Translations under genes and position numbers: made by a program
Source of the DNA: Thiorhodospira sibirica ATCC 700588
Lineage (GTDB): Bacteria > Pseudomonadota > Gammaproteobacteria > Ectothiorhodospirales > Ectothiorhodospiraceae
DNA: 64,000 nt
Direction of reading: 5' to 3'
Assembly (NCBI RefSeq): GCF_000227725.2
Contig: NZ_MU255056.1
Span: 2,339,169-2,403,168, forward strand
Shown here: one piece after another, positions 17,098 through 19,239 of the stretch
Position numbering within the stretch: position 1 is the first letter of the stretch
Layout: each line of letters opens with the position of its first letter
Notes under the pieces: model-generated
Seen by the model: the letters and a program-made list of their open reading frames with translations, nothing else
Databases searched by the model: none
Told to the model about the DNA's origin: nothing

Positions 17098-17345
17098 TCA
17101 TGGGAGCGCGTAGCCCCCTGGGAACGCGCAGCACCCGCTGCGCATAGTCATTAAACCCCACGAGGCCTACGGCCTCGTTGCGGAGCGGGTGCTCCACACT
17201 CCCACCCAACACTTGTCCAAGTCCTGATCATAATCAAGAAAAAACATATTTTTAATTGTCACGCGAAAATTTACAGGCATTATATGTTATAGCTTTTAGC
17301 TATAAGCGTTTAACTTTAAAATATAAGAAAACTTTGAAGGAGTTC
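17098..17345. other. Intergenic region: palindromic repeats then AT-rich promoter-like segment
   Basis: 17101-17210 carries GGAGCGC/GCGCAGC-type palindromes of the dispersed family. 17221-17340 is strikingly AT-rich compared with its surroundings. It contains a perfect 8-bp dyad TTATAGCT-TTT-AGCTATAA (17287-17305) and ends in a strong SD (GAAGGAG) before ATG 17346. It looks like the promoter and start of a gene whose body is now lost to the transposon beside it. Confidence 0.5.
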
Positions 17346-17408: not shown

Positions 17409-17615
17409 TCAAGGGTTGTCCGCCCCACCCTCCTTCGAGCGCAGCGAGCCTCTTCGGCGCAGTTCTTCGACACGCTGTCGGGCTAAATGCTTGAGCCAGG
17501 TGCCGAGTGATTTTTTCCCATCGGCTAACACGGCTTCGCGAAACAGCGCTTTCTCTTCTGGTGATAGCCGGAGGCACGTTGCTGGATGGCTCTTGATGGT
17601 AGAAAGGTCTTTCAT
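17409..17615 (-). CDS. Small DNA-binding-like protein divergent from tnpB
   Basis: A 68-residue basic protein (starts MKDLSTIKSHPATCLRLS). The centre, CLRLSPEEKALFREAVLADG, has the strand-then-helices pattern of ribbon-helix-helix repressors, followed by an arginine-rich tail. It is divergent from tnpB: its ATG at 17615 lies immediately beside a 33-bp palindrome (17618-17650) that covers the tnpB promoter. A longer frame from 17666 would read through that palindrome and is less likely; AAGGGG serves as SD for 17615. I infer that it represses itself and tnpB. I do not recognise the family firmly, and small genes next to tnpB can also be passengers. Confidence 0.55.
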   Translation of the reverse strand: MKDLSTIKSHPATCLRLSPEEKALFREAVLADGKKSLGTWLKHLARQRVEELRRRGSLRSKEGGADNP

Positions 17616-17617
17616 GA

Positions 17618-17650
17618 AGTATGCACCCCTTGACATTGACGGTGCATACT
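17618..17650. promoter_or_regulatory. 33-bp operator-like palindrome between tnpB and its divergent neighbour
   Basis: Perfect 10-bp arms AGTATGCACC (17618-17627) and GGTGCATACT (17641-17650) are separated by 13 bp. The arrangement between two divergent genes, one encoding a ribbon-helix-helix-like protein, is typical of an autoregulatory operator. Confidence 0.65.
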
Positions 17651-17657
17651 CTATCAT
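17630..17657 (+). promoter_or_regulatory. tnpB promoter, probably leaderless
   Basis: Perfect -35 TTGACA (17630-17635), 16-bp spacer, -10 TATCAT (17652-17657). The predicted start of transcription is at about 17664, and the tnpB ATG is at 17665, so the mRNA would be leaderless. The right palindrome arm lies in the spacer, so repressor binding would exclude RNA polymerase. Confidence 0.6.
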
Positions 17658-17664
17658 ATCCCCC

Positions 17665-18885
17665 ATGATTCAGCGATCCTACCAATTCAGGTTTTACCCG
17701 ACCGCCGTGCAAATGGTGCTGCTCGCACAATGCTTTGGCGCGGCTCGATGGGTCTGGAATACCGCGCTGGCTTGGCGTTCGCACTGTTACAAGATCGCGG
17801 GCGAGAAGGTCACTGGCGTGGATTTCTCGCGTGAATTGACCTGGCTGAAAAAGATCGAAGCCTTCGCCTGGCTGGCGACGATCCCCTCCACGGTGCTGAC
17901 GCAAGCCCTGCGTGACCAGGATCGGGCCTTTGCCAACTTCTTTGCCAAGCGCGCCAGATACCCGCGATTCAAGAAACACCGTGAAGCCGCGTCGATCCGT
18001 TTCCAGATTGATCAGCGGGGGGTGATGAACGCCTATCGCGCGGGCGAATTTCTGAAGCTGCCCGGTCTTGGCCTGCTCGATGTCCGGTGGTCGCGGATCC
18101 CTGGCGGTGTCCCCAAGATGGTCACCATCCGTCGCGATGCCGCCGGGCGGTATTTCGTGGCCTTCATGGTTGAAGAAGCGATCCAGCAAGCCCCCGTCAG
18201 CACTCAAAGCGTGGGCATTGATGTCGGGCTGAAGGATGTCATCATCACCAGCGCTGGCCAAAAGTCCGGCAACCCGCGCTATCTGCGCAGGTATCAGCGC
18301 CGCTTGAAGATGGCCCAACGGCGATTGAGCCGGAAGCAAAAAGGCTCGAACCGCTGGCATCGGCAAAAGCGCCGAGTCGCACGGATTCATGCCCGTATCT
18401 CCGATTCCCGCAAAGACTTCCTGCACAAGCAAACCACGGCGCTGGTTCATGACCATGGCGTCATCGCCATTGAAGACCTGTGCGTGAAAGGGCTGGTCAG
18501 AACTCGCCTGGCGAAATCCATGAGTGATGCGGCGCTGGGTGAATTGCGCCGTCAGCTCGAATACAAGTGCCAATGGCACGGGCGCGTGTTGCTGGTCGCT
18601 GACCGCTTCGCCCCCACAAGTAAAACCTGCTCCAGTTGCGGCACGGTGCAAGCCGAAATGCCGTTGCGGATCCGGGACTGGACCTGTCCCGACTGCGGAG
18701 CCGTTCACGAGAGAGACGTAAACGCTGCCGTGAATGTACTCATGTTCGCTACGGGCGGTAGGCCCGAAGGTCATGCGCGTGGAGGGCGAGAGACCCCAAG
18801 CGCCGGAGTCCCTGTGGACCTCGGAAAGCTGGCGCCCGATGAAGCGCGAACCAAACCGGAATGCGCGGGAGCGTGTCATGGATGA
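17665..18885 (+). CDS. tnpB: TnpB, RNA-guided nuclease of an IS200/IS605-type (IS1341-like) element
   Basis: A 406-residue OrfB_IS605 protein. TnpB proteins are RuvC-type nucleases guided by the RNA encoded at the 3' end of their own element. All three RuvC acids are present: D186 (GIDVG), E270 (IAIEDL) and D351 (ERDVNAAVN). A zinc finger is formed by C322/C325 (CSSCG) and C341/C344 (CPDCG). The N-terminal domain opens RSYQFRFYPT as in the family. No tnpA is present, so the element cannot move by itself. The ATG at 17665 matches the conserved N-terminus; longer frames run back through the divergent gene and are rejected. The stop lies in a terminal hairpin TGTCAT-GG-ATGACA (18873-18886). It appears catalytically intact, not converted to a dead regulator. 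Confidence 0.93.
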   Translation: MIQRSYQFRFYPTAVQMVLLAQCFGAARWVWNTALAWRSHCYKIAGEKVTGVDFSRELTWLKKIEAFAWLATIPSTVLTQALRDQDRAFANFFAKRARYPRFKKHREAASIRFQIDQRGVMNAYRAGEFLKLPGLGLLDVRWSRIPGGVPKMVTIRRDAAGRYFVAFMVEEAIQQAPVSTQSVGIDVGLKDVIITSAGQKSGNPRYLRRYQRRLKMAQRRLSRKQKGSNRWHRQKRRVARIHARISDSRKDFLHKQTTALVHDHGVIAIEDLCVKGLVRTRLAKSMSDAALGELRRQLEYKCQWHGRVLLVADRFAPTSKTCSSCGTVQAEMPLRIRDWTCPDCGAVHERDVNAAVNVLMFATGGRPEGHARGGRETPSAGVPVDLGKLAPDEARTKPECAGACHG

Positions 18886-18903
18886 CATGCGACTAAGCAT
18901 TAG
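18740..18903 (+). ncRNA. Probable omega RNA / right end of the TnpB element
   Basis: TnpB guide RNAs come from the tnpB 3' end and the element's right end. Here the last ~50 codons are non-conserved and rich in complementary stretches (GGGCGAGAGACCC, GTCCCTGTGGAC, GGCGCC...), followed by the TGTCAT-GG-ATGACA hairpin and GCGACTAAGCATTAGGGG. If the right end is at about 18903, the guide would begin in the mtrB/pioB stump. Boundaries are not certain. Confidence 0.4.
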
Positions 18904-19239
18904 GGGCGGACTCCAATTTTTTTACTACCGGGAACTGCCCAACGCGCTGCATGGGTCTACATGGAAACCGCTGGACGTAACGACGTGTATGCCCCCCTGG
19001 ACAGTGTTGCCTATCCGATCTTGAAATCCCATCTGCAACAATGGACCTTATATGGCAACTACCGCCTGCGCCACAATCTCGACCTGCGCCTGCGCTACAT
19101 GCTTGAGCAATACCGCGAATCGGATTGGGGCCTGCACATCGACGGTATGCGCGGCGTAGGCGATTTGATTTTGCTGGATCAAAACAGCCCCAGCTACACC
19201 GCCCACCTCATGGCCGCCACACTGCTATATCGCTTTTAA
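18904..19239 (+). pseudogene. C-terminal remnant of an MtrB/PioB-family outer-membrane beta-barrel
   Basis: About 110 in-frame codons without a start, ending in the beta-barrel C-terminus TAHLMAATLLYRF (terminal Phe). The alternating-strand text (LYGNYRLRHNLDLRLRYMLE) and the DLILLDQNSPSYTAHLM end resemble the last strands of MtrB/PioB proteins. These are outer-membrane sheaths for decahaem cytochromes in extracellular electron transfer or iron oxidation. An intact homologue is ~650-900 residues. The 5' side is truncated exactly at the right end of the TnpB element. No decahaem cytochrome gene is nearby, so the electron-transfer cluster appears to have been lost. Identification rests on a short segment. 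Confidence 0.5.

What the first reader, a model, noticed from the sequence alone, without database searches (positions are those of the whole stretch)
17409..17665. tnpB under apparent repressor control: divergent RHH-like gene, 33-bp perfect palindrome, leaderless start
tnpB is normally carried as a passenger without its own repressor. Here a 68-residue ribbon-helix-helix-like gene is divergent from it, with AGTATGCACC-N13-GGTGCATACT between them overlapping a perfect -35 and the spacer. Transcription is predicted to start at the A of the tnpB ATG. This would give tight control of an intact RNA-guided nuclease.
Basis: partly seen in the sequence, partly recalled or inferred. Interest (0 to 1): 0.72.

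Follow-up and report, generated by a model that had tools for sequence, protein, structure and literature searches.

The report
RNA-guided nuclease gene with own repressor
A small mobile element carrying tnpB, an RNA-guided DNA-cutting enzyme, also carries next to it a tiny DNA-binding protein gene whose paired operator sits on the tnpB promoter, so this copy probably makes its own off-switch, which such elements normally lack.

Summary
In detail: a 68-aa ORF (17409-17615, -) diverges from an intact tnpB (17665-18885, +). Between them AGTATGCACC-N13-GGTGCATACT (17618-17650) flanks a perfect -35. It is an inverted repeat with a 13-nt spacer, not an uninterrupted 33-bp palindrome. The protein is a ribbon-helix-helix (RHH) relative of small 'YlcI/YnfO' and 'HicB family' regulators of P4-like satellites, prophages and plasmids. 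Those genes carry, at their start codons, an inverted pair of GTN4AC dyads: 22 of 38 non-redundant loci against 0.02 expected. The window pair is the same motif, 23 bp apart instead of mostly 35. The best reading is an autorepressor that also occludes the tnpB promoter. Judged by shared ends with the closest relative (Thiospirillum, 66% TnpB identity, no RHH gene), the regulator lies inside the tnpB element. I found no RHH gene of this family beside any other tnpB examined, so the pairing is a singleton here and repression of tnpB remains inference. The leaderless start is not special: the -10 starts exactly 13 nt before the start codon in 47 of 98 related tnpB genes.

The parts
17409..17615 (-). 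68-aa RHH repressor gene (YlcI/YnfO/HicB-like small family)
17618..17627 (.). operator arm 1, dyad GTATGCAC
17641..17650 (.). operator arm 2, dyad GTGCATAC, within the -35/-10 spacer of tnpB
17630..17635 (+). tnpB -35 TTGACA, between the two operator arms
17652..17657 (+). tnpB -10 TATCAT; first base 13 nt before the ATG, the position favoured in related tnpB genes
17653..17658 (-). possible -10 (TATGAT) of the RHH gene, no good -35; weak
   Evidence: read from sequence
17665..18885 (+). tnpB, intact, 406 aa
17416..17426 (.). inferred left end TTGTCCGCCCC, shared with the Thiospirillum element
18735..18916 (+). guide-RNA scaffold region and inferred right end (GGGGCGGAC at 18903-18911); DNA identity with Thiospirillum stops at 18916

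Best explanation
The 68-aa gene encodes an RHH repressor of the small YlcI/YnfO/HicB-like family, acquired within the left end of an IS1341-like tnpB element. Dimers bind the two inverted GTN4AC dyads at 17618-17650. Because the dyads lie at the RHH start codon and bracket the tnpB -35, the bound protein shuts off both its own gene and tnpB. Expected behaviour is low steady tnpB expression once repressor has accumulated, with a transient burst when the element enters a cell without repressor. Shown by sequence: RHH family, operator class, promoter overlap, intact TnpB. Inferred: binding, autorepression, repression of tnpB, the burst on entry.
For: RHH profile match 39.7-42 bits against at most 11.7 in 5000 shuffles; family profile finds Arc, Mnt, AmrZ and HP0222 in the PDB; alignment-based model matches mostly RHH antitoxins and repressors. 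Relatives carry inverted repeats at the RHH start: 27 of 39 non-redundant loci with perfect arms of 9 bp or more, window included, 0.6 expected; GTN4AC inverted pair in 22 of 38, 0.02 expected. Operator overlaps an 11/12 sigma-70 promoter match of tnpB. RHH gene lies between inferred element ends shared with Thiospirillum.
Against: The pairing with tnpB was found only here. The dyad spacing (23) differs from the commonest in the family (35). In relatives the divergent gene starts about 130 bp away, so control of the neighbour is not a shown family trait. Individual fold matches are weak (E 0.7 or worse). No binding or expression data.
Confidence: 0.72

Rival explanations
1. The RHH protein only autoregulates; its operator overlaps the tnpB promoter by accident of compactness and the effect on tnpB is slight or none.
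For: In relatives the repeat lies at the RHH start while the divergent gene begins about 130 bp off.
Against: Here the arms bracket the tnpB -35, where bound dimers should block RNA polymerase.
Confidence: 0.17
2. The RHH gene and its repeat are host or satellite DNA that happened to lie beside the insertion site; it is not part of the tnpB element.
For: The Thiospirillum relative lacks it and the family is otherwise found in satellites, prophages and plasmids.
Against: The shared left-end motif TTGTCCGCCCC lies beyond the RHH gene's far side, so the gene is between the inferred ends; the tnpB promoter lies within the operator region.
Confidence: 0.06
3. The 68-aa ORF is not expressed and the repeat is chance or only a DNA structure.
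For: Direct family searches of the single sequence are not significant; the region is open in several frames.
Against: Profile match to an RHH family that independently carries the same class of repeat at the same place.
Confidence: 0.05

Closest known systems
Small divergent RHH proteins annotated YlcI/YnfO or 'HicB family antitoxin' in P4-like satellites, prophages and plasmids
   Same: RHH domain, about 60 aa, divergent from a neighbour, paired inverted GTN4AC repeat at the start codon
   Different: Neighbours there are Icd-like, SymE or hypothetical genes, not tnpB; dyads mostly 35 bp apart instead of 23; window protein has a 3-residue insertion and a longer tail
IS1341-type (tnpB-only) IS200/IS605 elements, closest relative in Thiospirillum jenense (L023)
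   Same: 66% identical TnpB, same inferred ends, same promoter position
   Different: No RHH gene and no inverted repeat before tnpB in the relative
Arc and Mnt repressors
   Same: RHH fold; dimers bind paired operator half-sites (established knowledge; profile match)
   Different: Arc and Mnt control phage P22 immunity genes; sequence similarity is weak
TldR, TnpB-derived RNA-guided repressors
   Same: tnpB family and transcription control in one story (PMC13418256)
   Different: In TldR the TnpB homologue is itself the regulator; here TnpB keeps its catalytic motifs and is the regulated gene

Membership tests
Ribbon-helix-helix regulators (YlcI/YnfO / HicB-like small family) | RHH domain sequence (conserved R in the strand, G-x-S-L-x-x-W-x-K in the helices) | tested here: met
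   family profile to Arc/Mnt
Ribbon-helix-helix regulators (YlcI/YnfO / HicB-like small family) | paired inverted repeat at the RHH start codon | tested here: met
   spacing 23 instead of mostly 35
Ribbon-helix-helix regulators (YlcI/YnfO / HicB-like small family) | dimeric beta-sheet DNA-binding fold | tested here: inconclusive
   monomer model pLDDT 74, two helices, no strand formed without the partner; matches mostly RHH but E 0.7 or worse
Ribbon-helix-helix regulators (YlcI/YnfO / HicB-like small family) | binding to the operator and repression | not testable with these tools
   needs gel shift and reporters
HicAB toxin-antitoxin antitoxin | adjacent HicA toxin and N-terminal HicB antitoxin domain | tested here: not met
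   68 aa, RHH part only; neighbours are tnpB and the ribBA-like gene
IS200/IS605 TnpB RNA-guided nuclease | RuvC motifs and zinc ribbon intact, TNB and OrfB domains | tested here: met
IS200/IS605 TnpB RNA-guided nuclease | guide RNA from the right end | tested here: inconclusive
   tail after the catalytic part conserved with Thiospirillum to 18916, fold z -2.08, no Rfam match
IS1341-type element | TnpB as the only gene between the ends | tested here: not met
   RHH gene also lies between the inferred ends; definition from PMC9956272

The most novel reading that the evidence does not exclude
A tnpB element has acquired a satellite/prophage-type RHH autorepressor that silences its RNA-guided nuclease in cells that already carry the element and lets it burst on entry to a new cell, a zygotic-induction switch for a TnpB nuclease.
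Probability: 0.35. Interest if true: 0.7.

Novelty: new variant of a known kind. Interest (0 to 1): 0.56.

Why it matters
IS1341 elements are described as encoding only TnpB, and how tnpB expression is held in check is little known. An element with its own operator and repressor would give a simple system in which to switch an RNA-guided transposon nuclease on and off and ask what that does to retention and spread. The paired GTN4AC operator of the YlcI/YnfO/HicB-like family, and the fixed leaderless promoter of tnpB genes, are general predictions that can be tested at once.

Tried and rejected
Single-sequence searches of the 68-aa protein in Pfam, NCBIfam, PHROGs and PDB gave nothing significant. 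Single-sequence structure and its fold search were uninformative. Exact-peptide scans of 84,980 genomes and of viral contigs found no close relative. Searching viral contigs for the exact operator arms gave 18 stretches, about chance by my estimate, none near an RHH gene of the family. Divergent ORFs before other tnpB genes were listed and none matched the RHH profile. The idea that the leaderless start is part of the special control was rejected. No paper joining TnpB with an RHH repressor or a leaderless start was found in the held library.

Full report
Observation. The ORF, the repeat, the promoter match and the intact tnpB are all present at the stated coordinates. The repeat consists of perfect 10-bp arms separated by 13 nt, not an uninterrupted palindrome. 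It is unique in the window (0.00 expected) and in the 3.2-Mb genome; a perfect 10-bp inverted repeat of any kind appears in 14 of 50,000 shuffles of the 49-bp intergenic stretch. The genome has 34 TnpB-like places but only this one copy of the operator and no other clear member of the RHH family.

What the small protein is. Direct searches are not significant. The weak plasmid hits at E up to 10, however, are led by one family: 'YlcI/YnfO family' or 'toxin-antitoxin system HicB family antitoxin' proteins of about 60 aa. These match Pfam HicB, Arc, RHH_1 and NikA. A profile of five plasmid relatives scores the window protein at 42 bits, against at most 11.7 for 5000 shuffles. Those five were found with the query, so this score is flattered; a profile of 31 relatives from viral contigs, which were reached through three of those five, gives 39.7 bits. 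The family profile finds Arc, Mnt, AmrZ and HP0222 in the PDB, the best at E 0.048, and the alignment-based model matches mostly RHH antitoxins and repressors, each weakly. Taken together I regard RHH as well supported; the dimer was not modelled.

What the repeat is. In four of five annotated relatives an inverted repeat lies immediately before or over the RHH start codon: L158 AGTGTATAGACC-N23-GGTCTATACACT, L159 GTACGTACCT-N23-AGGTACGTAC, L160 TGTATGGACC-N25-GGTCCATACA, L161 ATGGTAATTACC-N20-GGTAATTACCAT; L162 lacks a clear one. Among 39 non-redundant loci, window included, 27 have perfect arms of at least 9 bp where 0.6 are expected. Many arms share a GTN4AC dyad; an inverted identical pair occurs in 22 of 38 relatives, 0.02 expected, with 35 bp between dyads in 14 of the 22. 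The motif was read from the same loci, but one search used no motif and shows the same excess. The window pair (GTATGCAC / GTGCATAC) is 23 bp apart, 12 fewer, roughly one helical turn. So the repeat is best read as the operator of this RHH protein.

Consequence for tnpB. TTGACA lies between the two arms and the second arm lies in the -35/-10 spacer. A bound pair of dimers should occlude the tnpB promoter. This step is inference. In the relatives the divergent gene starts about 130 bp away, so control of the neighbour is not a demonstrated family trait.

Is the regulator part of the element? The closest TnpB found in a scan of 84,980 species genomes is in Thiospirillum jenense, 66% identical; the next are below 50%. 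DNA identity with it runs through the tnpB stop to window 18916 and ends. On the left, TTGTCCGCCCC occurs in both, about 70 nt before tnpB there and about 250 nt here, and its GTCCGCCCC is the reverse complement of GGGGCGGAC at both right ends. The RHH gene fills the difference, its stop codon lying just outside this left end. The boundary is inferred from one relative only.

Conservation of the pair. The RHH profile matches nothing convincing in about 130 other tnpB-bearing loci or beside eight plasmid tnpB genes; none of the RHH-family loci carries a tnpB in the DNA held. The pairing is thus a singleton in what I could search. The metagenome collection was not open to me.

Leaderless start. 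Across 98 distinct upstream regions of related tnpB genes, a TA...T hexamer begins exactly 13 nt before the start codon in 47, against 0 to 5 at every other position from -40 to -6, in proteobacteria, actinobacteria and cyanobacteria. Leaderless transcription is therefore predicted to be usual for this tnpB group and is not tied to the repressor. More distant tnpB genes of the same genome and order did not show it (0 of 7).

Literature. IS1341 elements are described as encoding only TnpB between their ends (PMC9956272); I found no report of an RHH repressor with tnpB in the held library.

Noticed in passing
upstream of tnpB in the window and loci L005-L157: In 47 of 98 distinct upstream regions of related tnpB genes a -10-like hexamer starts exactly 13 nt before the start codon, so tnpB of this group is probably transcribed leaderless as a rule.
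   Followed up: partly
L158-L162 and L177-L287, at RHH start codons: Small YlcI/YnfO/HicB-like RHH genes of satellites, prophages and plasmids carry a paired inverted GTN4AC operator, most often 35 bp apart, whose centre bases vary between subfamilies.
   Followed up: partly
window 17101-17204: Dispersed REP-like repeat with about 60 matching places in the genome, several in tandem on contig C5 near 206570-206838.
   Followed up: no
window 18961-19239: C-terminal fragment of an MtrB/PioB outer-membrane porin gene just downstream of the element; the rest of the gene is not beside it.
   Followed up: no
genome G000: 34 TnpB-like places but only two Y1 transposase matches: tnpB far outnumbers its usual transposase here.
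   Followed up: no
L288 and L293: On Citrobacter and Salmonella plasmids related tnpB genes sit at the same place between trbC and a thioredoxin-fold gene.
   Followed up: no
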